Notes under the pieces: model-generated
The model's input: the letters and a program-made list of their open reading frames with translations, nothing else
What the model was told of the DNA's origin: nothing
The model's database searches: none
IMG/VR virus record: IMGVR_UViG_3300003691_000045
Location: 1-25,701 of that record
Origin: a virus
Direction: 5' to 3' (one strand)
DNA length: 25,701 bases
Translations under genes and position numbers: made by a program
Shown: positions 2,618 to 23,493 of the stretch, piece after piece
Numbering within the stretch: position 1 is the stretch's first letter
Layout: every line of letters starts with the position of its first letter

Positions 2618-5600
2618 ATGTCAACATTCGATAAAGCTGTTGCTTTAGCCTCAACTGCTGATTCAAAAGCAGAAGATTTAGTAACAGCTTTGGTCGATGA
2701 TTCGACTGGTACAACTGCTGTTCAACGTGTTACTAAGGCATCTGCGGAAAAGGAGCGTATCCTTGCTCCAGATAGATTGCCTAGTTCTACTGAAAATTTC
2801 TTAGCACTAAATCCATTAGCTTCCCAAGAACAACTTGGGGAGTATACTTTATTAAAAGTACATCAAGACCTACGTGATGAAAATGAAGCGCGTATAGAGA
2901 AAGAGAATAATACCGCAGCCCAATCAAGAAACATTGGTCAAATCGTAGGTGACACTGCTGTCGATATAGTGGGTAAAGGTATTGCAGTTACGGCACCTGA
3001 AATGATATTCGGTGCATCAGAGTTACTAAAGAAAGCTCCATTAATTAAGCAAACTAATACAGCACGTAGAATGTTGACTGGTTTATTTAGTGGAGAAAGT
3101 GGTGCTGAAGTAGCTGAACGTGAAGAAGAACAAATTTCACAAATAGCCCCTGTATTTAATGAAGCTAGGGAAATACTCACAGCTATACAATCTGATGAAC
3201 TACAAGCCACTAAAAAAGTAATGGACAGAAAGTCAGCTGAACGTGCTGCTATCCGTGAAGAAGAGTTAGGTGAGAACCCCGAGTTATTTGATATAATTAA
3301 AAGTGAGGCAGGAGCAGCAGTTGATACTGCGGTGGCCTATGCACAAAACCCATCAGCACTAGCATCCACAGTGTCGGAGTCATTACCTCAAATGCTGGTT
3401 CCTGGTGGGATAACTAAGGGAATTACTAAAGGTGTCCTGACTAAAGCTGGTAAAGCATCCGTAGCGCCCAATTTTAATAAAACTAAAAAAGGTAGAGATA
3501 TTTTTAATGCTCTATTGCCTAAAGATAAAGTTGGTAAAAATTTCAGAAGAACTCCTCAGGGTAAACAATTATTAGATAATATTCGTTCACATGCTGAGAG
3601 AAAAGGTGCAGCTGAGTTTGCGGCAAGTAAGGCAGGCAAAGCACAACTAAATAGAATAGCAGAAACTGCTGGTGTCACTTATACAGCATTATCTGAGGGC
3701 TTATCAAACGCTGTTGGAATCAAGGGTGAGATAATGTCTGCCAGTGAGTCACAGCTACGTAAATCATCTGACCCATACAATGAATTACGTGAAGCAGGTA
3801 AGACGCATGAGCAAGCTCGTAGAGCCTTAGCTGATGAAGCTTTTACTGAGACTTTCGTAATTGCAGGAGCACTTGGTGGAGCATCATCCTATTTATCTGG
3901 AGCAGGTAAATTAGAAGGTAAACTGTTTAAATCAGATTCTGCTTTTGGTAGTAACATATTAACTAAAATTGTTGGTAGTGGTACTAAAGAAGCTATTGAG
4001 GAAACAGCCCAAGGTGCCAGTGGCCAGTTTGCAGGTAATGTTGCTAAATCAAACACGAGCAACACTGACCAAAATTTGTTAGAAGGAACTGGAGATGCAG
4101 CAGGTGCAGGTTTTGTTACTGGATTAGCTTCCGGTGGTGGCTTAGCAGGTATTGCGAATGCACCAAAGGCACTTGCTACTGGAGCTAGAACTGCTGGCAA
4201 TCAGGTAGTGAAATTATCAGATAAGAAAACTGGGATGACTGAGGAAGTCCGTACAGCAGTCAAAACGGGTAATACTGCGGATATTACTGATACAAAAAAT
4301 GAAGACTACGATGCAGAGAATGCAATCAATACTGAGTTCCTTACAGTTCCCGAGGACGATGCAGGGGCTGCTAAGCAATTTGATAAGATAAAGACTCATC
4401 TTCTTAAAATGAATGATGAGATAAACTCCATGGAGCCAGGGAAAGCTCAGGATGATAAACAGAAACGATTCGAAGCTCATATATCCAAATTACGTGGTTT
4501 AAATCAAGAGCGTCAGAAGAAAGCGCAAGCCACTACTAAAGAGTTCGTTGAGAACTTGCCCGACAAAGCAGATGCCGAGGTATCAGAGAAAATAGATACT
4601 TCTCTGAATACCTTTGGCTCATCTCCTAGAAGTAGTCAGGAAGCAGTTGACAATACTATTCAACAAGCAGAGGCAATTATTAACTCTGGTTTAGCTAATC
4701 CTGAGCAAACTAAAAAATTAGAGGAACAAGTCACAACACTGAAAACTTATGATGTGGTTACTCAAGAAGTTTTTAATGGTAGAGAACAATTCAGTGGTAT
4801 CAATTTTTACCAAGAAAATATTCAAGGAGCAATTGACAGTAATGACACTGAGACTGCTCAAACTGGCTTAGATGCTTTAACAAAATTTACGAAAACTCAT
4901 GCGAATAAACTAGCTCAACTTGAGATAGCATTTCCTGCATGGGATAAAAAAGATAGAGGGCAGGACATAACTGTTGAAGAACAAGCTGCTATAGATTTTA
5001 TTGAATCTAAGCCATTACTCAAAGGTAATGGTAATTTCAAAATATCATCAAATACTAAGTTAGGTATTCTGCCTGCATTGAGGAAAGAAGTAGCAGCACT
5101 AGAAGCAGCAACTATCGAATCACAAAGCATAATACAAGCTGGCCCAAGTGCTGTTGAGGCTTCTACCGCCTCGCAGGTGGTAGAGTCAGCGAATGAGCGT
5201 AGCGAGGTCGGTGAACCGAAAACAAGCAATGCCAGCGTTGAAACAAAAGAAGTAAGTAGAGGACAATCATTATTAAATGAAGCTACTGAATTAGGACTAA
5301 AAATTCCTGCGGCTATCAGAAATAATCCTGAGCACAAAAAATCGATTAAATCTTTGACAGCTAAAGTTAAAGCAGCAAAGAAAGCTACCCCAAGTGTTGC
5401 GCCAAATCCTGGGGGTAGTGAGTCTACGAACGGTCCCCAGGATGACAGTGCAAACAATGGTAGCGTTAATAAGAAAAACTCTCCACAGATAAAAGATGAA
5501 TCTAAAACTAAGGAAAGTAAAGCTAGTAAAAAAATGAGACAAGATAGTGCAACTCAGTTGTTGTCTCCATTACGTAATGACAAAAATGTTAACCAAGTTA

Positions 5601-8600
5601 ATGATGCAATATTTAACCTAGCAGAAAAGCTAAAAGAATTTGTAGGCAATAAAGGTTTAGGTCCTGCACTGAAATCTATACGTAAAGGTATCAAAAATTC
5701 TATAGATGGTAAAATTGATTTAACCAATAAGGATAAAAATTATTTACTAGGTTTACAGTTAGCTAAGGATACTGAACTTAAAGATGAATTTTCATTGAAA
5801 GATAATATACTTGAAAATAGTGCGTCACCTACTGACCGGATAAATAAAGATGGTAAAATTGTGAATAAAGGCGCAGATAATATTTTATCTACTTTATTTA
5901 AAGCAGTTAAAACTAATGTAAATAATCGTCTACAAACCATTAGTAATTTATTTACTAAGATGGAAACAGACATAAATGTTATTGGTGAGTTAACTGATAA
6001 GCAACGTGAAGCTATGCCAGTTATCCAGAAATTTAATAAAATATTTACTGATACCTTTTTCAATAAAGTATTGAGGGTTAAAGACCCACAGTTTGCTTTC
6101 CAAGATACATTCCAATATTTTATTAGTGCAGGGGCAACTCAAGAAAATTTGCGTGAGCATTTGAATGAGAATCTAGTTAGTACAATGGGGATGGTAGCTC
6201 TTAATTGGGTTGCTACTCGCTCAGGTGATACTGTTGTCAATAACAAAGATGCCGTTAATAGATTATTAGGAAGAGACACTAAACAAGCTGTCACTCCTAC
6301 AGAAAGAATATTCTTATCCCAAGCTGGTACATTACAAAAGAATGTAGTTAGTAGTATTGGTAAAGATGTTATTAAAGCTCTGGGTATAAAGGTTAATTCT
6401 GATGCCCCAGGGCAAACAGTATCCAATCTTGAGAATGCAATAGGTAATATGGTGCTCGCTACTCTGTTAAGTTCAGATATGGTTACACAAACAACAATAC
6501 CATCTATTGTTTTTAATTCCTTTAAAGATAAAGATTTTGCATCACCATCAATGGATATGCTTAATAATATAAAAACATATAAAATAACTGCAAAAGACAA
6601 AACAGACTCTGCTATAAATAGTGCATTGAGTAATACCACAAAAGGCAAGCAAATAAATAGAATGGATATTGCTGAAGTCAAATTTACTAACCAGAAAGGA
6701 AAAGCATTTTATTCGTGGACAGGTAAAGAATGGAAAAAGCATGAGGATACCACCACCAATTTCATCAGAGTGGTCACTGAAGTAAACGAAGACAATATAG
6801 CAATTCCTGCTAGTAACATACAGGATTATATGGAGGCAATACAAGACTCTGACAAAGTACTTGAGGTTTTGTTTGGTGTTGACTCCTACGCTACTGAACC
6901 AAGCTTAGAAGCTCCTACTGAGGCCCCTAAGCTATTAAAGAATTCTTTTCTGAAAGTACCAGATAAGATGCGTAAAGTTCTGGAAAAAATACAGAAGCGT
7001 TCTCATAAATTACATCAGAATATGTTTGACGTAATGGACTGGTTAGATTTGCACGATGAGAAGAATAGTTTAATTATTCAGGGTGTTGATTATGATTACG
7101 AAACGACTGCACATTCGGAAGATAGGAAAAGTATTGAAGCAAAAAACGCAGACATACTTCGTAATCACAACCACATCCAAGCGTTCAGAAAAAGAGTCGG
7201 AAACTCCGCCTTCTATTTTAAATCAGTAGTATGGAAAAATATGAGAATGGGATTAGATTCAAATACAGTCAACCCACAAACTGATAAGCATCACAGATTT
7301 ATGCTTGGTATGGAATCTCATACAGTTACTCTTGACCCTAATAATCGTAAACATATGCAGCAATTTTTCTCTGCTGTAGGTCAAGGACTAAAAATAGATG
7401 TAGATAAAAATACTATTACTGGTAGCTTGAATGCTTTACATGAAAAATTTGAGAAAAATGATATATTAAAGGATGGAATTGATGCTCTAATAAATAGAAA
7501 CAATCCTGACGCAGTAATTGCAGCTGTTAAGATGGGGGGAGAGAATACTCACTCACTTGCTGCACTTGTCGCATATGCTGAATATATCAAGGCTGATGGT
7601 AAACCATTTACAACTAATCTAACTCGTGAAGTAGATGGAATAACTAATGGTGTTGCTATTGGTTTATTACAACTAATGCGTAACCAACTAGAGAATAAAC
7701 TAAAGCGTACTTTGAAGCGTACTGGTATATTCACAGACAGTACAACAGGATTTGGTGGGTGGATAAATAAAACAACGAATAACGATAGTTATCAAAATAT
7801 GTCATTACTTTGGGTGAACAGCCTAAGAGCGTTTAGTAAAGCACCGCCTTCTGACTTTGTTAATATGACTAATAATACAAATGCAGCAATGACAGGACTG
7901 GCTAGTTTAGTTGGTAAAATGATTGATGAAACTGGTATCACATCCGTAGGGCGTAAATTAGTTAAAAACCCTCTAATGATTACCAATTATGGTGCAGGCA
8001 TAAAGAAAGTTATTGGTGCATTTACTGAGAATCGTATAGCTAATATTTACACTGAAATAGCAGAAGCTAATCAGAAAGAAAATCCTAATGCTGAGATAAC
8101 TATTATCATTAACAATATTAATGCTACGTTGGGTAATGGGATAAAACCTATCGATATTGGTACAGTATTATCTGACCCACTTGAATGGACTATGCCTTTC
8201 AATATTAAGCTGCATTTGGAGAGCTTAATACAGATTTCCTATGGTAGTACGTTAGAAGCCGCTATAGATAATGAGTTTGGTGAGTTCATTGAAGAACGTA
8301 AACAATTGGTCAAAGCTACTTCGTTAATGTTTGAAGGATTTAAGCTAAGGTACGAAACTGGATATAATAGACTTGTTGCTAAAAATAATGGAGATATGCC
8401 ATCTAGGGAAGCCGTTGATGCACTGAATGAATCACTATTAGATTCCATGCCAATGTTCAAAGGTTTTTTCTCTGGCACCAACGATGATGGTATTTTGGTA
8501 ATGAACTCTGTGAATGCTCCTGCTGATGTAAATAATACTAAGTTTCTTACTGATACTAGAGTAACTAGCCCAATGGACACCACTCATATAGGTGTCAATG

Positions 8601-11600
8601 GTGTGGCCACTCCAGGTGCTCCAGTTAAGTCACTAAAAGCACATGCCACTAAACCAACATGGGAAGATGGTGGAGTGTCCGGTCCAATCAGTGCTATTCA
8701 CAATTTGGATTCAGCTACCATGTTGAATATGCTTGAGAACAATGAAGCAATTAATGTACATGATGCTGCTATATTTTCTTTATTAGATGTCGAAGAAAGT
8801 AGTCAAGATTTCAACAAGCAATTCATTGAGACTATGCAAAATTATTCTATGGCCGCTGAAATTAATACAGCGTTAGAACGGACGATGAGATTGTTATCTA
8901 CTATTGATAAGAAAACAAATAACACCGGTCAACGTACTAACTATATTTCTAAATTGAACAAGAGCCAAGGCAGAAAACTTAGTAGTGATGATAAGCCAAT
9001 TACTGTTGGTCAGTTTATGCGTCAGTTTAAACAGCAAGCAGATATCAATGACCAGAAGCGTGATGAATTTTTCCCACAGATAACTGGCGTTGACCAATAT
9101 ACTGCTGGAGAGTTAAGTACTTTCTTATTGGATAAGGATTTACCTAATGACCAGAGAAAAGTAATTGAGGATGTTATAACTGAATTACAGGGTGAATTGA
9201 AACAGCAATTAAAAGACAAAGAGAATGATGATAAAGCACCTGACCAACAAAGTATTGAATTGACAGGAACAAATACTCGCTTAGTGTTGCAACATTTAAA
9301 AGCACTTGATGTGAATGAATCATTTGATGAAGTTGATATTGCTAAGGTGGAACTACGTAGGTTAATTAAGTTAATTGAGCAGGGCGACAGTTTAGATTCA
9401 GCAATAAAAAAAGTGACTGATATACTGGCAGCAAGGCAGACAAGTGCGCTCAAGAAAAAACTCAATAGAGAAATTACAGAAGACGACTTAACTGTTGATA
9501 GCTTCCCTATTGAATTGAGAGAAGCGTTAGTAAAATCATTGAAAGAAGATTCCACATCCTTTCAAAAAGATTTACTGTTCTCTGATTCATTTGGCTCAGA
9601 TTTAAATGATATTGACCCTAATACTTTTATTGCAGATAATGTTCAGGAAATAACCAATAAAGATACAGAAGCTGTATATGATTCATTGGGTAAAGATGAC
9701 CCAGTGGGGGACTCTCAGGAGCATGACAGCCATTTACGATTGGTTCTATCAAGTATTATCAATAAAGTATTGAAGCCTACTAACCTATTCACCAGAGAGC
9801 TAGGTGATACTAATGAAGGTTTATTCAGTAATGGTGATATTTATATGTCTAATTCCCAGCCGAGTAAGATGTCGGCACTGGGAGCTAGAATGTCACAGAG
9901 AGAAGTATTTGTGCATGAACTTATTCACAATGTTTCGCATTCTGCTGTTAACGGTAGTACTGCTATAGCAAGACAATTACGTAAATTATATACAGAGGTT
10001 AGGGACTCTGGGCAAATAGATGCTACTAGTTTTATGGAAGGTAATTATCAGATAGGTGACCCAGGTTATGCTGCTGAATTAAAGGTAGCCCAGTTAAGAT
10101 ATGATTATATTTTTGGTGACAAAATTGGCACTCACGTTATCGAACGTAAAGACCCATTAACAGGTCAAACTATTAGAGAAGTATTAGATAACAGTCATCA
10201 TGAATTTTTGGCTATCGGTGTAACTAATGCTGCATTCCGTAAAGCACTTAAGAATGTTAAAACTAAACGTAAAACTTTTAAAGATGGTGATACATTAATA
10301 GAAAGCTTCACTAACTTACTTGAGAATATGTTAAATTATTTTGCTGAAACTTTTGCAGGCACTCGTGGTAAATCTATTGATAGACAATTAATGTTATTAG
10401 CTGGTCAGTTAGCTGGAGTAGATACCCGCGCCAAGAATAAATTATGGCAGAGTGCAGAAAAAGCAGGAGACATTGTAGGCAAGTCATTTGATACATTGGC
10501 TTTCTTAGTCACTAAACCATTTAATATACTAATTGGCTCCAGTATAGTGAAAAAAAGTAGATTCCGTGCAGTCAAAGGATTGGGTACTATCGCTGAGTCA
10601 ATTCCATATTTAGACGAGTATCCTGCCGCAATCAGATACATCAGAAATTCAATGGGAATCACTGGAGAATCTCTATCGTCTTCATTCCTAACTGAATTAC
10701 AAGGATTAACAAAAGACAACGGTTATTTACATGCACTGGGTAGATTGTCCAATAAAATTATTGACCAATTACGTAAACGTATAACAGTCCACGTTAGTAA
10801 AATGGTTAGAGATAGTTTCAAGACTGAGTTAAGCAAAGAAGAAATGGATGCAATGAGTAAGGTATTCCTTAAAGCTGACATCGATGGATTATTCTTAGCT
10901 GATGCAGAGGGTAATGTAAATTACGATGGTACTGAGTTACACAAATTATTAACCAGTAAAACTGCATTACACAAAGAGATAGATTCTATCGTTAAGACCC
11001 TTAAAACCACTTTTACAAAAAATGGTTTATATTACTCATCCATGGGATTAAGCCTTGGTCACGAGATGGCAACTGGCCGTCCTATCGAGAAGTGGTCACT
11101 TAAGAATGCTAATGTAATTGCTGAGTTGGATGCTACTAATTTGAAAGCTGAAGGTGACTTGAAATTAGCTGAGGAGTTAATCGATAGATTGGCTACATTA
11201 AGTGCTATCAACCACACTGACAGTAAACACGTAGAGAATGCAGCTGCTGTTGTCCAGAGAGAGTTTGCTGAGAACAAGGATGAGAATGGTATATTGTTTA
11301 CTATGGCTCTCCACAGAGAGTCTAAACGTAAAGCATTAGAGCTGTCATTCAAGGGACAGAAAAAGCTATTTGTTAAGGGTTATACTAAAGAAATATTTAA
11401 TCCAAATAAATCATTCACAATTGCTCCTGCATCGCACGAGGTTGAACTTAACCGTCAAGGCTTTACGATGGGAGAAAAAGTGAAGAAAGATGGCGTAGAC
11501 CCTCAGACTGGAGCTGAGTTGTATATGTATATTAACAATGATGGGGCTCCGTCTACTTTCATGGCTGGTATCTTATCATTCACTAACCAAAGAGCTAAAG

Positions 11601-13162
11601 GTGCCAATGTTGTAGATGTCTACAGTCAACAAGGTGAACTTGACCCAGTTGCATCTGCTTACTTGGATAGACCAATCATTGATGCTGCTAAAAGACGACA
11701 AATTGCTGCGATAGCAAATGGCATAAGTCAACCACTACCAGATGACGAGGGAGTTCTCATACCTATTCTGGATGGTAAGGGCAATGTCTCTGACTATCGA
11801 TACCAGATGGATGAACATAAAAAAGATACTATTCTTGATAAGAACAATCAATTAGATGCAATCCTCGGGGGAATGGAAGCCAACATTGAAGATAAGAAAA
11901 ATACTGAAATTATTAATAATGAAGTTATTTCTGCTACTAAAAGTTTCTACGATAAGAACAAGAAAAAGAACAACATAGGCTTCACTGAGATAGGTCCTAA
12001 GGCTCCATTGGAGAAATACAGACAAATCTATCATATGCTTCCAAAGTCTACTAGGGACGAAATGAGAAGGGTCTGGGGCAATGATACTATGTTCATTAGA
12101 AGTGAAGAAGCTGTGCTGGTGTTTGGTCAACGTAAATTTAGTATTGCTCAATTAGAAAAGAGAGATGCCTATAGTTTAAAAGGCAGAGAATATATTGATG
12201 CTCAAGTAAATAATGTAATGTCATTTTTACTTAATCATAAAGTTGGCCGATTCTCAGAATCTGTTTGGCAAGAAAGTATTAAATTGGTAAAGGATGCTAT
12301 TGTTATAAAAAGTGGGGGAGTATTAATTGGTAATGTGATTAGTAATACTATTTTACTAAAAACTTTAGGTGTTCCAGTTAAGAACATTGCAATTGACCAA
12401 GCAAGAGCTTTGGTTTTTGCTAAGGAATTTTTGAGAGATACCGAATTATTGGCTACTCTAAGAGATGAGGAAAAATTGGTACCCACTAAAAAGGGTAAAA
12501 ATTTAAAGAGAATTAGGGAATTGGAAACTGCTATCAATCGTAACCCTGTTAAGGAATTGTTTGATGCTGGTATACATCAATCTATAATTGAGGATGTAGA
12601 AGATAATGATAATCCACATTCATACCAAGGTAAATTAGAAAGCTTTTTAAAGAAAAATAAAGTAACAGGTACTCTGATTAATCATACACCTGAGTTACTT
12701 AAAACAGGACTTAAAAATGTATTTATGACGCATGATACTGCTATTTATAAATTTATGCGAGATGCTACTCAACTCTCAGATTTTGCTTCGAGGTTTGCAT
12801 TACATGAACATAATAAAAAACAGGGAATGGACCCAAAGAAATCTATTGATGCAATTGTAGAAGCATTCATAAATTATGATTTGCCCACACATCAATATCT
12901 TCAATATGGAAATGATATGGGTTTAACTATGTTTACTAAATTCTTTATCAGAATCCAGAAGGTAATATTTATGTTAGCCAAAGAGCGTCCAGGTAGTTTA
13001 CTAGCTACTATGGTTGCTCAGGGACTAACAATTGATATGCCTGAAATTTCCGACTCTACTTTTACACTCAATAGAATATTAAATAAAGTAGGAAATCCAA
13101 TAGATTTACCAGAAGAGATAATTGATGCGCCTTACACAATTGGTTCAACGCTAATCGATTAG
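2618..13162 (+). CDS. Virion-encapsidated RNA polymerase (N4 gp50-like vRNAP), 3,514 aa
   Basis: A giant single-subunit RNA polymerase, packaged in the virion and injected to transcribe early genes. All T7-family motifs are present. The R1543 region (KNMR, followed by DSNTVNPQTDKHHRF) stands for the T/DxxGR motif. Motif A is EVDGITNG with D1673. Motif B is R1779-LV-K1783 with NPLMITNYG ending in Y1791-G. Motif C is INVHDAAIF with D2049. The gaps 130/106/270 closely match N4 mini-vRNAP (R424, D559, R666, D951). The catalytic domain therefore lies at about residues 1110-2150. The first ~1,100 residues carry small-residue hydrophobic stretches (about 100-130, 405-425 and 490-515) and then a low-complexity linker (about 840-980). 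The ~1,400-residue C-terminal part, the encapsidation domain in N4, contains a zincin-like HELIH (H2433, E2434, H2437). The length matches N4 gp50 (3,500). AAGGA precedes the ATG. Confidence 0.96.
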   Translation: MSTFDKAVALASTADSKAEDLVTALVDDSTGTTAVQRVTKASAEKERILAPDRLPSSTENFLALNPLASQEQLGEYTLLKVHQDLRDENEARIEKENNTAAQSRNIGQIVGDTAVDIVGKGIAVTAPEMIFGASELLKKAPLIKQTNTARRMLTGLFSGESGAEVAEREEEQISQIAPVFNEAREILTAIQSDELQATKKVMDRKSAERAAIREEELGENPELFDIIKSEAGAAVDTAVAYAQNPSALASTVSESLPQMLVPGGITKGITKGVLTKAGKASVAPNFNKTKKGRDIFNALLPKDKVGKNFRRTPQGKQLLDNIRSHAERKGAAEFAASKAGKAQLNRIAETAGVTYTALSEGLSNAVGIKGEIMSASESQLRKSSDPYNELREAGKTHEQARRALADEAFTETFVIAGALGGASSYLSGAGKLEGKLFKSDSAFGSNILTKIVGSGTKEAIEETAQGASGQFAGNVAKSNTSNTDQNLLEGTGDAAGAGFVTGLASGGGLAGIANAPKALATGARTAGNQVVKLSDKKTGMTEEVRTAVKTGNTADITDTKNEDYDAENAINTEFLTVPEDDAGAAKQFDKIKTHLLKMNDEINSMEPGKAQDDKQKRFEAHISKLRGLNQERQKKAQATTKEFVENLPDKADAEVSEKIDTSLNTFGSSPRSSQEAVDNTIQQAEAIINSGLANPEQTKKLEEQVTTLKTYDVVTQEVFNGREQFSGINFYQENIQGAIDSNDTETAQTGLDALTKFTKTHANKLAQLEIAFPAWDKKDRGQDITVEEQAAIDFIESKPLLKGNGNFKISSNTKLGILPALRKEVAALEAATIESQSIIQAGPSAVEASTASQVVESANERSEVGEPKTSNASVETKEVSRGQSLLNEATELGLKIPAAIRNNPEHKKSIKSLTAKVKAAKKATPSVAPNPGGSESTNGPQDDSANNGSVNKKNSPQIKDESKTKESKASKKMRQDSATQLLSPLRNDKNVNQVNDAIFNLAEKLKEFVGNKGLGPALKSIRKGIKNSIDGKIDLTNKDKNYLLGLQLAKDTELKDEFSLKDNILENSASPTDRINKDGKIVNKGADNILSTLFKAVKTNVNNRLQTISNLFTKMETDINVIGELTDKQREAMPVIQKFNKIFTDTFFNKVLRVKDPQFAFQDTFQYFISAGATQENLREHLNENLVSTMGMVALNWVATRSGDTVVNNKDAVNRLLGRDTKQAVTPTERIFLSQAGTLQKNVVSSIGKDVIKALGIKVNSDAPGQTVSNLENAIGNMVLATLLSSDMVTQTTIPSIVFNSFKDKDFASPSMDMLNNIKTYKITAKDKTDSAINSALSNTTKGKQINRMDIAEVKFTNQKGKAFYSWTGKEWKKHEDTTTNFIRVVTEVNEDNIAIPASNIQDYMEAIQDSDKVLEVLFGVDSYATEPSLEAPTEAPKLLKNSFLKVPDKMRKVLEKIQKRSHKLHQNMFDVMDWLDLHDEKNSLIIQGVDYDYETTAHSEDRKSIEAKNADILRNHNHIQAFRKRVGNSAFYFKSVVWKNMRMGLDSNTVNPQTDKHHRFMLGMESHTVTLDPNNRKHMQQFFSAVGQGLKIDVDKNTITGSLNALHEKFEKNDILKDGIDALINRNNPDAVIAAVKMGGENTHSLAALVAYAEYIKADGKPFTTNLTREVDGITNGVAIGLLQLMRNQLENKLKRTLKRTGIFTDSTTGFGGWINKTTNNDSYQNMSLLWVNSLRAFSKAPPSDFVNMTNNTNAAMTGLASLVGKMIDETGITSVGRKLVKNPLMITNYGAGIKKVIGAFTENRIANIYTEIAEANQKENPNAEITIIINNINATLGNGIKPIDIGTVLSDPLEWTMPFNIKLHLESLIQISYGSTLEAAIDNEFGEFIEERKQLVKATSLMFEGFKLRYETGYNRLVAKNNGDMPSREAVDALNESLLDSMPMFKGFFSGTNDDGILVMNSVNAPADVNNTKFLTDTRVTSPMDTTHIGVNGVATPGAPVKSLKAHATKPTWEDGGVSGPISAIHNLDSATMLNMLENNEAINVHDAAIFSLLDVEESSQDFNKQFIETMQNYSMAAEINTALERTMRLLSTIDKKTNNTGQRTNYISKLNKSQGRKLSSDDKPITVGQFMRQFKQQADINDQKRDEFFPQITGVDQYTAGELSTFLLDKDLPNDQRKVIEDVITELQGELKQQLKDKENDDKAPDQQSIELTGTNTRLVLQHLKALDVNESFDEVDIAKVELRRLIKLIEQGDSLDSAIKKVTDILAARQTSALKKKLNREITEDDLTVDSFPIELREALVKSLKEDSTSFQKDLLFSDSFGSDLNDIDPNTFIADNVQEITNKDTEAVYDSLGKDDPVGDSQEHDSHLRLVLSSIINKVLKPTNLFTRELGDTNEGLFSNGDIYMSNSQPSKMSALGARMSQREVFVHELIHNVSHSAVNGSTAIARQLRKLYTEVRDSGQIDATSFMEGNYQIGDPGYAAELKVAQLRYDYIFGDKIGTHVIERKDPLTGQTIREVLDNSHHEFLAIGVTNAAFRKALKNVKTKRKTFKDGDTLIESFTNLLENMLNYFAETFAGTRGKSIDRQLMLLAGQLAGVDTRAKNKLWQSAEKAGDIVGKSFDTLAFLVTKPFNILIGSSIVKKSRFRAVKGLGTIAESIPYLDEYPAAIRYIRNSMGITGESLSSSFLTELQGLTKDNGYLHALGRLSNKIIDQLRKRITVHVSKMVRDSFKTELSKEEMDAMSKVFLKADIDGLFLADAEGNVNYDGTELHKLLTSKTALHKEIDSIVKTLKTTFTKNGLYYSSMGLSLGHEMATGRPIEKWSLKNANVIAELDATNLKAEGDLKLAEELIDRLATLSAINHTDSKHVENAAAVVQREFAENKDENGILFTMALHRESKRKALELSFKGQKKLFVKGYTKEIFNPNKSFTIAPASHEVELNRQGFTMGEKVKKDGVDPQTGAELYMYINNDGAPSTFMAGILSFTNQRAKGANVVDVYSQQGELDPVASAYLDRPIIDAAKRRQIAAIANGISQPLPDDEGVLIPILDGKGNVSDYRYQMDEHKKDTILDKNNQLDAILGGMEANIEDKKNTEIINNEVISATKSFYDKNKKKNNIGFTEIGPKAPLEKYRQIYHMLPKSTRDEMRRVWGNDTMFIRSEEAVLVFGQRKFSIAQLEKRDAYSLKGREYIDAQVNNVMSFLLNHKVGRFSESVWQESIKLVKDAIVIKSGGVLIGNVISNTILLKTLGVPVKNIAIDQARALVFAKEFLRDTELLATLRDEEKLVPTKKGKNLKRIRELETAINRNPVKELFDAGIHQSIIEDVEDNDNPHSYQGKLESFLKKNKVTGTLINHTPELLKTGLKNVFMTHDTAIYKFMRDATQLSDFASRFALHEHNKKQGMDPKKSIDAIVEAFINYDLPTHQYLQYGNDMGLTMFTKFFIRIQKVIFMLAKERPGSLLATMVAQGLTIDMPEISDSTFTLNRILNKVGNPIDLPEEIIDAPYTIGSTLID
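5165..5218. repeat. GC-rich palindromic patch inside the vRNAP linker
   Basis: ACCGCCTCGC (5165-5174) pairs with GCGAGG-T-CGGT (5202-5212) with one bulged base. CGGTGAACCG (5209-5218) forms a second small stem, and TCTACCGCC/GGTGGTAGA (5163-5185) is an alternative hairpin. The patch is clearly more GC-rich than the AT-rich gene around it and lies in a Ser/Glu/Thr-rich, probably disordered linker, staying in frame. It looks like an in-frame REP/RPE-like insertion, but its family is unknown. Confidence 0.5.
5385..5441. repeat. Second GC-rich inverted-repeat patch in the vRNAP linker
   Basis: CCTGGGG (5408-5414) and CCCCAGG (5435-5441) form a perfect 7-bp inverted repeat. The overlapping CTACCCC (5385-5391) and GGGGTAG (5412-5418) form a competing 7-bp pair. 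The stretch encodes a Pro/Gly/Ser/Asn-rich linker before the RNA polymerase domain. Two mutually exclusive stems suggest repeat-derived DNA rather than a terminator. Confidence 0.4.
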
Positions 13163-21504: not shown

Positions 21505-21598
21505 TATATTTAAGCTCTCACACACCACGAGATGTTGAAGCGTTACCATCTCGCCTGCTAACGCTAAGCTTTTAGTAATGTGTGTGAGCTTAAATATA
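21505..21598 (-). ncRNA. Pseudoknotted structured RNA upstream of the nuclease-primase operon
   Basis: A 19-bp closing stem (21505-21517 with 21586-21598, plus 21520-21525 with 21580-21585, 2-nt bulge) encloses an H-type pseudoknot. CGAGATG (21528-21534) pairs with CATCTCG (21547-21553), and its loop AGCGTTA (21539-21545) pairs with TAACGCT (21559-21565). Both inner stems are perfect 7-bp matches. The element ends about 24 nt before the coiled-coil gene start on the - strand, so it may be a cis-acting leader (riboswitch-like, attenuator or processing/stability element) or a separate small RNA. No known family recognised. Confidence 0.7.
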
Positions 21599-21612
21599 CT
21601 TTAAAGAGGAAG

Positions 21613-21640
21613 GTGGAACGGACAGATAGCCTTCTGCCAC
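21613..21640 (-). other. Hairpin between tRNA-Ile and the pseudoknot RNA
   Basis: GTGG/CCAC (21613-21616/21637-21640) and CAGA/TCTG (21623-21626/21633-21636) form a two-part hairpin with a 6-nt apical loop and a one-sided 6-nt internal loop. It may be a tRNA-processing signal or part of the neighbouring structured RNA; no T-run follows, so it is not an obvious terminator. Confidence 0.4.
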
Positions 21641-21647
21641 GCTCCGA

Positions 21648-21720
21648 TTTCAAATACAGGAATCGAACCTGTTACCGATTGATTATAATTCAATTGCTCT
21701 ACCAAATGAGCTAATTTGAT
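21648..21720 (-). tRNA. tRNA-Ile (UAU anticodon)
   Basis: A full cloverleaf on the - strand. The acceptor is ATCAAAT/ATTTGAA (first pair A-A mismatched). The D arm is GCTC-ATTTGGTA-GAGC. The anticodon arm is ATTGA-ATTATAA-TCAAT with anticodon TAT. The variable loop is CGGTA and the T arm is ACAGG-TTCGATT-CCTGT. The discriminator is A and CCA is not encoded. It reads AUA, a codon common in the AT-rich phage genes but often rare in hosts. The mismatch at the first pair may matter for RNase P or for stability. Confidence 0.92.
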
Positions 21721-21763
21721 ACAATTGTATTTTTCGTTTAAGTCTTCGTTTTATAATAATCAC

Positions 21764-21864
21764 GTTCTGCGGAATACCACTTTCCCAACCGGCCCCACAA
21801 TATTCTCATTAGAAAATACTCTGGCGGCCGGTACCCGATTTGAACGGGTGTCTCAGAAACAAAA
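21764..21864 (-). tRNA. Candidate circularly permuted tRNA gene (3' half precedes 5' half)
   Basis: Read along the - strand, a tRNA 3' half comes first (21864-21822). It has TTCTG (positions 39-43), AGAC, T arm ACCCG-TTCAAAT-CGGGT, acceptor ACCGGCC, discriminator G and an encoded CCA. After a 27-nt linker (21795-21821) that folds into a 9-bp hairpin (two G-U pairs), a 5' half follows (21794-21764). It has acceptor GGCCGGT, T8 G9, D arm GGAA-AGTGGTA-TTCC, G26 and stem CAGAA, then C32. GGCCGGT pairs perfectly with ACCGGCC, and CAGAA with TTCTG. Joined between 32 and 33 the anticodon loop would be CTTTTGT (anticodon UUU), but G73 and G37 are atypical for Lys, so the identity is open. Neither half has a normal contiguous partner. 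Confidence 0.75.
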
Positions 21865-21905
21865 TACCAGACAAACTACTTAATCCAATTGATGGTTTAA
21901 AGCTG

Positions 21906-21966: not shown

Positions 21967-22743
21967 TTACGAATGGATGAACTTAAATAATTCCTCACCC
22001 ACTACAGTTATTGTGTCCACTTCAACGCTGTTTGCTCGTTGACGGGCTTGCTTCACTGCTGACATAAGAATATCAATGTTAGTTAATAACTTTGATTTAT
22101 CACCGGCAGGAATCATTCCAGAAGTGTAACGTGTTTTAAATTGACCGACAACCACTTCTTCACTCGTGATATCTACCTGAGCTTTATGCTCTTTAGTAGC
22201 TTCAGAGATTGTGTGATATTTTCGCATTTTTTGTGTCTTAGCTTTTACTTCAGTATCCGCAGATATAAAAATATTATCTAATGTATTCGCTGCATTATCA
22301 TCAGAAATCCAACGAACGCCGGGCTGAAGTGTTGGGATAGCTTCGTAATATTTACGGATATCTTTCAACTTTGTTTCCAAGCCTAATAAGAATGTAGCAG
22401 GTAAGTTAGGTAAAATTACTTTATCACCTATAACAATATCTGCTACAGCATTTTGGTTAGCACGTTCTTTTGTACAAACAACATTTAACCAATCAGATAC
22501 ACTTGAGTTTGTGTAGTCAATTCGGTCAAGAACTGTGGTAGTTATTTCTTGGTTAACTGAGGATGCTTTTTCTAAAGACTCATGGCCTTCAGTATCCATA
22601 GTAAGTGATTTTGTCATACCAACAAACAGGTTATGTTTGCTGCCTAAGACATTCACAGATTCTTCCATGATGCGTCTTGCTGTTCCAGTTTTATCTGCTT
22701 CGACAGCTAGAATTTCATGTAGTGCAGGTTTGCGTGTATTCAT
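21967..22743 (-). CDS. Conserved phage protein of unknown function, 258 aa
   Basis: Start set at ATG 22743 (MNTRKPALHEIL...) because GGAG lies 7 nt before it; a longer frame to 22815 would have a hydrophobic leader unlike the family and no ribosome site. It is a soluble alpha/beta protein. The N-terminus, Lys-Pro-Ala-Leu-His-Glu-Ile-Leu-Ala-Val-Glu, is a pattern I associate with a widespread family of phage hypothetical proteins found near DNA polymerase genes. No catalytic motif is evident. Being flanked on both sides by structured RNA, it is the only gene in the 1.8-kb stretch from 21482 to 23301. Its place between polymerase and primase suggests a replication role, but this is inference. 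Confidence 0.85.
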   Translation of the reverse strand: MNTRKPALHEILAVEADKTGTARRIMEESVNVLGSKHNLFVGMTKSLTMDTEGHESLEKASSVNQEITTTVLDRIDYTNSSVSDWLNVVCTKERANQNAVADIVIGDKVILPNLPATFLLGLETKLKDIRKYYEAIPTLQPGVRWISDDNAANTLDNIFISADTEVKAKTQKMRKYHTISEATKEHKAQVDITSEEVVVGQFKTRYTSGMIPAGDKSKLLTNIDILMSAVKQARQRANSVEVDTITVVGEELFKFIHS

Positions 22744-22835
22744 TGATTTCTCCATTGAATAGGTTAAGTTAATTAAAATGAGTTCCCTTACAAAAGGTAT
22801 GAAGGGTAATACCACGACACTTACATGACCGATTT

Positions 22836-23269
22836 TACAAAGCCGGTAAATCTCCGGATATTCTTACTAGAATAGGGATGACTCCTTACGGGAGTCAGTC
22901 GGGTTGCATACCCCATGAGGGCCTACCGCACTCGGTTTCCTCAGTGCTGCTACTGCTCATGGCTGGAATTCCACCACTAGGGTCTTATGGAAATTCATCC
23001 CCGTTATATTTGACTATCACAACAGATAGCTCCAATATGCCTTAGAGGGAGAGTTTTATAAAAGGAATTCGCGGGGAGCATTCCACTCCCTCGTATTGTC
23101 TTATTTAACTAGGTCTTACTTTTCACAACGTGTACTTCTCTACGTTAACGCTACTTGGCTAGGACTTATTAGATACCAAACAATATATAGGTGCTCTTTA
23201 CGTGAGTTAGCCGACCAGTTTCATTCATGCCACTGGCAGGACACTAAAGAAGGAGTTATGAATCTCCTT
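22836..23269 (-). ncRNA. Long structured non-coding region between polymerase and primase genes
   Basis: No convincing gene in 22744-23301. Instead there are successive stems: CCGG (22843-22857), TATTCT/AGAATA (22859-22874), GACTCC/GGAGTC (22880-22896), CCATGAG/CTCATGG (22913-22962) with inner GCACT/AGTGC (22928-22947), and ATATT..CTATC/GATAG..AATAT (23006-23038). Then come GAGGGAG/CTCCCTC (23045-23092) with inner GGAAT/ATTCC (23064-23084), AACGT/ACGTT (23127-23146), CTTTA-GTG/CAC-TAAAG (23196-23249) with inner CCAGT/ACTGG (23215-23236), and AAGGAG/CTCCTT (23250-23269). The hairpin loop CGGGG (23072-23076) can pair with CCCCG (22999-23003), a pseudoknot. The region is more GC-rich than its neighbours. 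Strand assumed from gene direction; an origin of replication is an alternative. Confidence 0.6.
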
Positions 23270-23286
23270 TGAATTTTCCACAATAA

Positions 23287-23301
23287 CTGCACGGAGTGCA
23301 G
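23287..23301 (-). promoter_or_regulatory. Triloop hairpin at the end of the 63-aa gene
   Basis: On the + strand: CTGCAC-GGA-GTGCAG, a 6-bp stem with a GGA triloop, touching the stop of the gene at 23302. On the - strand the loop is TCC and TTATTGT follows, a poor U-tract for a terminator. N4 vRNAP early promoters are template-strand hairpins of 5-7 bp with a purine-centred triloop (GGA in promoter P2), so this is either a weak terminator or a promoter-like hairpin firing into the structured region. Confidence 0.45.
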
Positions 23302-23493
23302 CTATAAACCATCTTTTACTTCATCAGTAAAATCATGTGCAGTTTCTTCGATGAGAAACCTAATGTAATTAGGGTCTTCTTCGACTACATCAGATACTAA
23401 CATTTCTTGATATTTCCCAAATGAGAAATAATCATCCATGTCTAATTGATGGTTAATATTTTCTTCACCAAATCTTGCCATTTTGTTTTCCAT
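23302..23493 (-). CDS. Small protein with ExoX-C-terminal-like motif, 63 aa
   Basis: A 63-residue acidic protein. The segment FSFGKY (23-28) followed by VSDVVEEDPNYIRFLIEE (33-50) matches the short motif seen at the C-terminus of exonuclease X-type proteins and as stand-alone phage proteins (xFGKY..G..v.dVa..DP.Yl.WL). That motif is known or suspected as a DNA- or nuclease-associated accessory domain; here it stands alone. ATG 23493 has no clear ribosome site; the second ATG (23481) has GGAAAA upstream and could be the real start. A 6-bp hairpin, GTAGAA/TTCTAC, lies in the 30-nt gap upstream. Confidence 0.7.
   Translation of the reverse strand: MENKMARFGEENINHQLDMDDYFSFGKYQEMLVSDVVEEDPNYIRFLIEETAHDFTDEVKDGL

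What the first reader, a model, noticed from the sequence alone, without database searches (positions are those of the whole stretch)
21764..21864. Apparent circularly permuted tRNA gene in a phage
On the transcribed strand a tRNA 3' half with encoded CCA precedes a canonical 5' half. The two acceptor arms (GGCCGGT and ACCGGCC) are perfect 7-bp complements, and the anticodon arms (CAGAA and TTCTG) perfect 5-bp complements. The 5' half keeps T8, A14, G18-G19 and A21; the 3' half keeps the TTCAAAT loop. Chance pairing of both arms is very unlikely. Permuted tRNAs are known in some algae and archaea, where they need eukaryotic or archaeal splicing. In a phage of bacteria, some other joining route would be required. 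The linker forms a hairpin. The outer flanks have partly complementary stretches (AGAC-TT-AAAC near 21735-21744 against GTTTGTCT near 21869-21876; CAATTG near 21721-21726 against CAATTG near 21886-21891) that could draw the halves together.
Basis: partly seen in the sequence, partly recalled or inferred. Interest (0 to 1): 0.88.

Follow-up and report, generated by a model that had tools for sequence, protein, structure and literature searches.

The report
Phage tRNA-mimic Y-type RNA with DUF7873
The "back-to-front tRNA gene" in this phage is real, but it is most likely a small structural RNA that imitates a tRNA (a bacterial Y RNA), and it sits beside an uncharacterised protein gene in hundreds of phages and bacteria that mostly lack the usual Y-RNA partner Ro60.

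Summary
On the minus strand at 21858-21765 a complete tRNA 3' half (T-arm, 7-nt acceptor strand, G73, CCA) precedes a complete 5' half, with perfect 7-bp and 5-bp arms. It is not a one-off. The gene just upstream (21967-22743, Pfam DUF7873) is followed, on the same strand, by one or two such elements in 79 of 80 viral and 77 of 80 bacterial DUF7873 loci fetched. Every arm covaries, and so does the tertiary pair 15-48 (173 of 185). The flanks pair into a basal stem. No anticodon or U33 is conserved, and several complete relatives carry no RNA ligase. This is the architecture of YrlA-type bacterial Y RNAs (Rfam RF02553). A model built from these elements also finds the Y RNAs beside Ro60 genes in a Rhizobium phage and in Nannocystis. 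Unlike classical Y RNAs, most of these genomes lack Ro60, and DUF7873, whose predicted fold matches nothing searched, takes its place. So: not a tRNA awaiting splicing, but a Ro60-independent branch of tRNA-mimicking Y-like RNAs linked to DUF7873. What remains open is that phage versions usually encode CCA (81 of 106), hinting that the acceptor loop is cut to free a tRNA-like 3' end. Nothing here was tested by experiment.

The parts
21967..22743 (-). DUF7873 gene (258 aa from the ATG at 22743; an in-frame GTG lies further upstream), immediately 5' of the RNA; probable protein partner
   Evidence: Pfam PF25283 E=2.2e-64; followed by a permuted element in nearly all relatives
21728..21888 (-). 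whole Y-like RNA element: upstream basal strand, permuted tRNA-like module, downstream basal strand (exact transcript ends unknown)
   Evidence: covariance model R1 90.2 bits (this sequence is one of the 45 in the model, so the match is by construction)
21859..21888 (-). upstream strand of the basal stem (includes GTTTGTC)
   Evidence: pairing with the downstream strand, family-wide control; fold of this element
21822..21858 (-). tRNA 3' half: anticodon-stem 3' strand TTCTG, variable AGAC, T-arm, acceptor 3' strand, G73, CCA
   Evidence: covariation
21795..21821 (-). linker closing the acceptor stem; forms a hairpin that extends the acceptor and pairs CCA with UGG
   Evidence: in the closest relative L165 the pair is CCU:AGG
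21765..21794 (-). tRNA 5' half: acceptor 5' strand GGCCGGT, T8, D-arm with A14, G18, G19, A21, and anticodon-stem 5' strand CAGAA
21730..21764 (-). internal loop and downstream strand of the basal stem (GAC-TT-AAAC)
21646..21721 (-). ordinary tRNA-Ile (anticodon UAU) directly downstream; neighbour, not part of the element
   Evidence: ARAGORN, Rfam tRNA 61.3 bits

Best explanation
The element is a tRNA-mimicking noncoding RNA with the architecture of YrlA-type bacterial Y RNAs: a basal stem formed by its two ends, an asymmetric internal loop, and a tRNA-like module whose T-arm, acceptor stem and D-arm come in permuted order because the RNA runs through the cloverleaf from the anticodon side. 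It is not spliced into a tRNA. It belongs to a large branch that travels with DUF7873 rather than with Ro60. Most likely DUF7873 binds the basal stem or internal loop (inferred from linkage only), while the tRNA-like module docks on a tRNA-binding partner, by analogy with the PNPase tethering described for Ro60-Y RNA. Shown by computation: the fold, its covariation, the linkage to DUF7873, the shared architecture with Ro60-linked Y RNAs, and the usual absence of Ro60. Inferred: transcription as one RNA, binding by DUF7873, the target and the biological role.
For: Linkage: R1 matches in 79 of 80 viral loci (the miss is a truncated contig) and 78 of 80 bacterial loci (77 downstream of the gene), all on the gene's strand; the independent script finds a hit in 159 of 176 loci, against 12 hits in 3.4 Mb shuffled. 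Covariation: all 21 pairs have changes on both sides, score 0.838 against 0.217 shuffled and at most 0.21 when slid. Tertiary pair 15-48 kept in 173 of 185, 96 expected if independent. Basal stem: upstream/downstream duplex mean -19.8 kcal/mol against -12.1 with swapped partners. Known class: RF02553 YrlA, same topology, 30-43 bits at these elements. R1 finds Ro60-adjacent Y RNAs in Rhizobium phage L245, Nannocystis L246 and Actinomadura L247. Not a tRNA precursor: no conserved U33 or anticodon. Ro60 absent from most records, including 6 of 7 named phage records tested. YrlA architecture as described in PMC8394870.
Against: The window's own copy is not called YrlA by Rfam even at E up to 10, and relatives stay below the gathering score of 69. 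The basal stem of this copy is weak on its own. The strong retention of CCA in phage copies is not needed by an uncut Y RNA. Nothing shows that DUF7873 binds RNA, and its predicted fold matched nothing.
Confidence: 0.78

Rival explanations
1. Two-piece tRNA-like RNA: in phage copies the linker is removed by tRNA-processing enzymes (RNase P at G1, 3' trimming to CCA), leaving a nicked tRNA-like module with a free CCA end held together by the basal stem, somewhat like two-piece tmRNA.
For: CCA follows position 73 in 81 of 106 viral elements, and in 22 of 22 with linkers of 6-12 nt. Linkers vary from 3 to about 90 nt while the acceptor stays exactly 7 bp. Many linkers are A/U-rich with no partner for CCA.
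Against: Chromosomal copies mostly lack CCA (29 of 106). In hairpin linkers CCA is replaced by CCU or CCG with a matching partner (L165 CCU:AGG; L126 CCG), so there pairing rather than CCA is kept. U73 is common (42 of 106 viral), so no amino-acid identity is evident.
Confidence: 0.25
2. Genuine circularly permuted tRNA gene: circularised or joined at the anticodon loop and cut at the acceptor to give a decoding tRNA (for this copy a junction C32-U33 would give anticodon UUU).
For: Complete cloverleaf; ARAGORN accepts the joined halves; CCA encoded; some relative genomes carry RNA ligases or RtcB.
Against: Positions 32, 33, 37 and 38 unconstrained across 185 elements. The closest relative L165 changes the whole anticodon stem and conserves no loop. 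No RNA ligase family found in Vibrio phages D497 and K479 or Gordonia phages Ronaldo and Phendrix (a host RtcB cannot be excluded).
Confidence: 0.05
3. Natural permuted group I intron (PIE): flanking intron halves splice the permuted tRNA into a circle.
For: The order exon 2 - exon 1 is the PIE order; the flanks pair with each other.
Against: Only about 110 nt lie between the DUF7873 stop and the 3' half, and about 43 nt between the 5' half and tRNA-Ile; no intron family reported by Rfam.
Confidence: 0.01
4. Chance, assembly artefact, or remnants of two duplicated tRNAs that each lost one half.
For: Single metagenomic contig; tandem tRNA arrays can mimic the pattern (seen in G007, G008).
Against: Conserved permuted order with compensatory changes in hundreds of independent genomes, including isolate phages.
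Confidence: 0.01

Closest known systems
YrlA-type bacterial Y RNA (Rfam RF02553; Salmonella YrlA, PDB 6CU1)
   Same: Basal stem from both ends, internal loop, short stem in the anticodon position, then T-arm, acceptor hairpin, D-arm in that order; tRNA tertiary core.
   Different: Linked to DUF7873 instead of Ro60/Rsr; Ro60 usually absent; CCA encoded in most phage copies and linker often long; the TTGCG motif repeated near Y RNAs of a Ro60-carrying phage (L245) is essentially missing here (also absent from the Nannocystis Ro60 cluster L246, so not a universal marker); below the RF02553 gathering score.
Circularly permuted tRNA genes of red/green algae and archaea
   Same: Gene order 3' half - linker - 5' half with full cloverleaf.
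   Different: No conserved anticodon; halves stay joined through a basal stem; present in bacteria and phages; partner gene DUF7873.
Two-piece (permuted) tmRNA
   Same: tRNA-like domain encoded 3' part first, with an encoded CCA and a linker that may be removed.
   Different: No tag reading frame; canonical D-arm with G18-G19; basal stem instead of a tmRNA body.
Ro60/Rsr-Y RNA-PNPase RNP (RYPER)
   Same: Y-type RNA encoded beside a protein gene.
   Different: DUF7873 (about 250 aa) gave no structural match to any solved structure, TROVE proteins included.

Membership tests
YrlA / bacterial Y RNA | tRNA-like module with T-arm, acceptor and D-arm in permuted order | tested here: met
YrlA / bacterial Y RNA | basal stem formed by 5' and 3' ends, enclosing the module | tested here: met
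   family-wide -19.8 against -12.1 kcal/mol with swapped partners; weak for the window copy alone
YrlA / bacterial Y RNA | match to RF02553 at its gathering score (69 bits) | tested here: not met
   window: no match at E<=10; relatives 30-43 bits; even Ro60-linked Nannocystis Y RNAs reach only 47-64, so the cut-off is insensitive
YrlA / bacterial Y RNA | encoded beside a Ro60/Rsr (TROVE) gene | tested here: not met
   no TROVE in 6 of 7 named phage records and 8 of 13 host genomes, nor in 19 of 22 large viral contigs (contigs may be incomplete); neighbour is DUF7873
YrlA / bacterial Y RNA | binds Ro60 and tethers PNPase; modified by TruB and DusA | not testable with these tools
   needs biochemistry
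Circularly permuted tRNA gene | 3' half upstream of 5' half with full cloverleaf | tested here: met
Circularly permuted tRNA gene | anticodon loop restored on joining (conserved U33, anticodon) | tested here: not met
   positions 32, 33, 37, 38 unconstrained in 185 elements
Circularly permuted tRNA gene | bulge-helix-bulge or other splice motif at the junction | tested here: inconclusive
   asymmetric internal loop seen in folds; no dedicated motif search was run
Circularly permuted tRNA gene | circular or joined RNA in cells | not testable with these tools
   needs RNA sequencing
Permuted group I intron | catalytic core in the flanks | tested here: not met
   no intron family reported by Rfam; flanks too short

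The most novel reading that the evidence does not exclude
DUF7873 and its RNA form a second, Ro60-independent Y-RNA-type particle, spread by phages, in which phage-borne copies are cut at the acceptor loop into a nicked tRNA with a free CCA end that could be charged or presented to EF-Tu or other CCA-binding partners.
Probability: 0.22. Interest if true: 0.88.

Novelty: new variant of a known kind. Interest (0 to 1): 0.7.

Why it matters
Bacterial Y RNAs have been understood as partners of Ro60. Here a tRNA-mimicking RNA of that architecture appears in at least 139 viral loci and 268 bacterial loci encoding its neighbour, mostly without Ro60 where checked, next to a conserved protein of unknown fold. 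That gives the orphan family DUF7873 a concrete, testable job (RNA partner) and makes the question of what Y-RNA tRNA mimics are for testable in phages that can be grown (Gordonia, Arthrobacter, Rhodococcus, Rhizobium, Klebsiella). It also warns that 'permuted tRNA' calls in bacterial and phage genomes need this class excluded first.

Tried and rejected
Exact-acceptor pattern scan of viral contigs: 51 stretches, none passing the permuted-tRNA scans. D-arm pattern scan: 3 coding-like stretches without a tRNA. Blastn of the element against phages: nothing relevant. Relatives found through the exonuclease gene (L001-L015) lack the element, because DUF7873 is absent there too. Group I/II intron: no Rfam support. 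tmRNA: only weak partial scores. Ro60 as the missing partner: absent from most records. Phage RNA ligase as a general joining route: absent from four of eight complete phages. DUF7873 against solved structures by sequence and by fold, and against viral structure models: no match. R1 hits in Uabimicrobium (G007) and Myxococcus (G008) away from DUF7873 proved to be ordinary tandem tRNAs, a known false positive of this search. The 2014 paper that defined bacterial Y RNAs and later reviews are not held, so I could not check whether any DUF7873-linked copies were already listed there.

Full report
Observation. The minus strand of the window carries, between the DUF7873 gene and a tRNA-Ile, a full set of tRNA parts in permuted order. 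All four arms pair (7/7, 5/5, 4/4, 5/5), and T8, A14, G18, G19, A21 and the TTCAAAT loop are present. ARAGORN misses it in natural order but calls a tRNA when the halves are joined with an arbitrary 7-nt loop. A strict scan gave only this hit in the window and the loci then held, and none in 5.7 Mb of shuffled sequence. The linker is a hairpin that extends the acceptor stem and pairs CCA with UGG.

The window is an entire 25.7-kb virus record. The very large ORF at 2618-13162 and the primase, exonuclease and single-strand-binding genes place it among N4-like phages; that placement is partly from general knowledge. No close DNA relative is in the phage collection.

Following the neighbours. The gene immediately upstream is Pfam DUF7873. 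Its homologues in Vibrio phage D497 and Rhizobium phage RHph_TM21B are each followed by a permuted tRNA-like element of different sequence. The same holds in Rhodococcus, Arthrobacter, Gordonia and Klebsiella phages, often with two elements in tandem. DUF7873 was then used to fetch 80 viral and 80 bacterial loci (at least 139 and 268 relatives exist). A script scan found elements in 159 of 176 loci (12 hits in 3.4 Mb shuffled), and most of the rest showed one on reading. Covariance model R1, built from 45 elements, matched 79 of 80 viral loci, the exception being a truncated contig, and 78 of 80 bacterial loci, 77 of them downstream of the gene, always on the gene's strand. The viral count is partly circular because many of these loci are in the model; the bacterial set is independent except for L165.

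What is conserved. All 21 base pairs of the four arms show compensatory changes (score 0.838, shuffled 0.217, slid versions at most 0.21; 299 cells changed on both sides). The Levitt pair 15-48 covaries (G-C or A-U in 173 of 185; 96 expected if independent), so a tRNA-like three-dimensional core is under selection. The flanks pair with each other far better than swapped flanks do, giving a basal stem separated from the anticodon-position stem by an asymmetric internal loop. In contrast, the would-be anticodon loop positions are unconstrained. In the nearest relative (L165; DUF7873 54% identical) the anticodon stem CAGAA:TTCTG has become CGATT:AATTG and the linker stem CCA:UGG has become CCU:AGG: structure is kept, anticodon and CCA are not.

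What it is. This is the plan of YrlA-type bacterial Y RNAs, described as a large stem from both ends plus a tRNA-like domain resembling D, T and acceptor arms (PMC8394870; a tRNA-like domain in YrlA is also noted in PMC7790460). Rfam's YrlA model aligns to relatives in this topology with 30-43 bits, below its cut-off of 69; the window copy is too diverged to be listed. The link is not only by resemblance: R1, trained on DUF7873-linked elements, independently finds the RNAs beside Ro60 (TROVE) genes in the Rhizobium phage (L245), Nannocystis (L246) and Actinomadura (L247), where Rfam also reports YrlA, at up to 64 bits. One Rhizobium phage thus carries both a Ro60 with its Y RNAs and, about 5 kb away, a DUF7873 with its own.

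What differs. Ro60 is absent from 6 of 7 named phage records tested and from 8 of 13 host genomes, and from 19 of 22 large viral contigs. The TTGCG motif repeated near Y RNAs of the Ro60-carrying Rhizobium phage is essentially absent from DUF7873-linked flanks, although it is also absent from the Nannocystis Ro60 cluster, so it is not a universal Ro60 marker. DUF7873 is predicted with good local confidence (mean pLDDT 88, pTM 0.67) as a mixed helix/strand protein without significant match among solved structures or viral models. So by strict membership the RNA works like a YrlA but fails two usual criteria (Ro60 linkage, Rfam cut-off), and I file it as a new variant.

Mechanism. Most likely the basal part is the protein-binding handle and DUF7873 its partner, while the tRNA-like head binds something that normally handles tRNA. 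The linkage, fold and covariation are shown; transcription, binding, target and role are inferred. A point that this picture does not explain is CCA: 81 of 106 viral elements encode it, all 22 with linkers of 6-12 nt do, and many of those linkers are A/U-rich and cannot pair with it. Chromosomal copies have short acceptor loops and usually no CCA. Phage copies may therefore be cut in the linker into a two-piece tRNA-like RNA. I rate that at about one in four.

Why not a spliced tRNA. There is no anticodon conservation, no RNA ligase in several complete relatives (a host RtcB cannot be excluded), and flanks of roughly 110 and 43 nt, too short for a group I intron, with no intron family reported by Rfam.

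Limits. The literature library holds only open-licence papers; the founding Y-RNA papers could not be read, so prior listing of some copies cannot be excluded. No paper held mentions DUF7873. Loci were chosen as the best tblastn matches, so the linkage figures apply to those. Tandem tRNA arrays can give false R1 hits. No expression or binding data were available.

Noticed in passing
window 21602-21645 (-): A stable hairpin (GGAGCG-U-GGCAGA..UCUGUC-CGUUCC, z -3.6) ending in ACC directly 3' of tRNA-Ile; found in only one of the fetched loci, the closest relative L165 (4065-4093), and in no viral contig.
   Followed up: partly
window 22744-23302 (-): About 560 nt without a gene upstream of DUF7873, with several hairpin-like stretches; unexplained, possibly a structured leader.
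   Followed up: no
window 21513-21590: Strong inverted repeat between tRNA-Ile and the 78-aa ORF, terminator- or leader-like.
   Followed up: no
L245 (Rhizobium phage RHph_TM21B 111900-115200): TROVE/Ro60 gene with a cluster of unannotated YrlA-type RNAs upstream, one with a Leu-type D-arm and a C-CCA end.
   Followed up: partly
L070 1870-2890 (Vibrio phage D497): Series of hairpin-rich, partly tRNA-like stretches between tRNA-Pro and DUF7873, annotated as tiny hypothetical proteins; unexplained.
   Followed up: no
L081 4009-4088 (Klebsiella phage FBKp24): Annotated 'tRNA-Sup-TTA' overlaps the second permuted element and is probably a misannotation of its 3' half.
   Followed up: partly
L246 (Nannocystis exedens, G003:C1:5605500-5610500): Six tandem YrlA-type RNAs beside a divergent TROVE gene, five of them scored by Rfam at 47-64 bits, all below the YrlA cut-off; the Rfam model misses much of the class.
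   Followed up: partly
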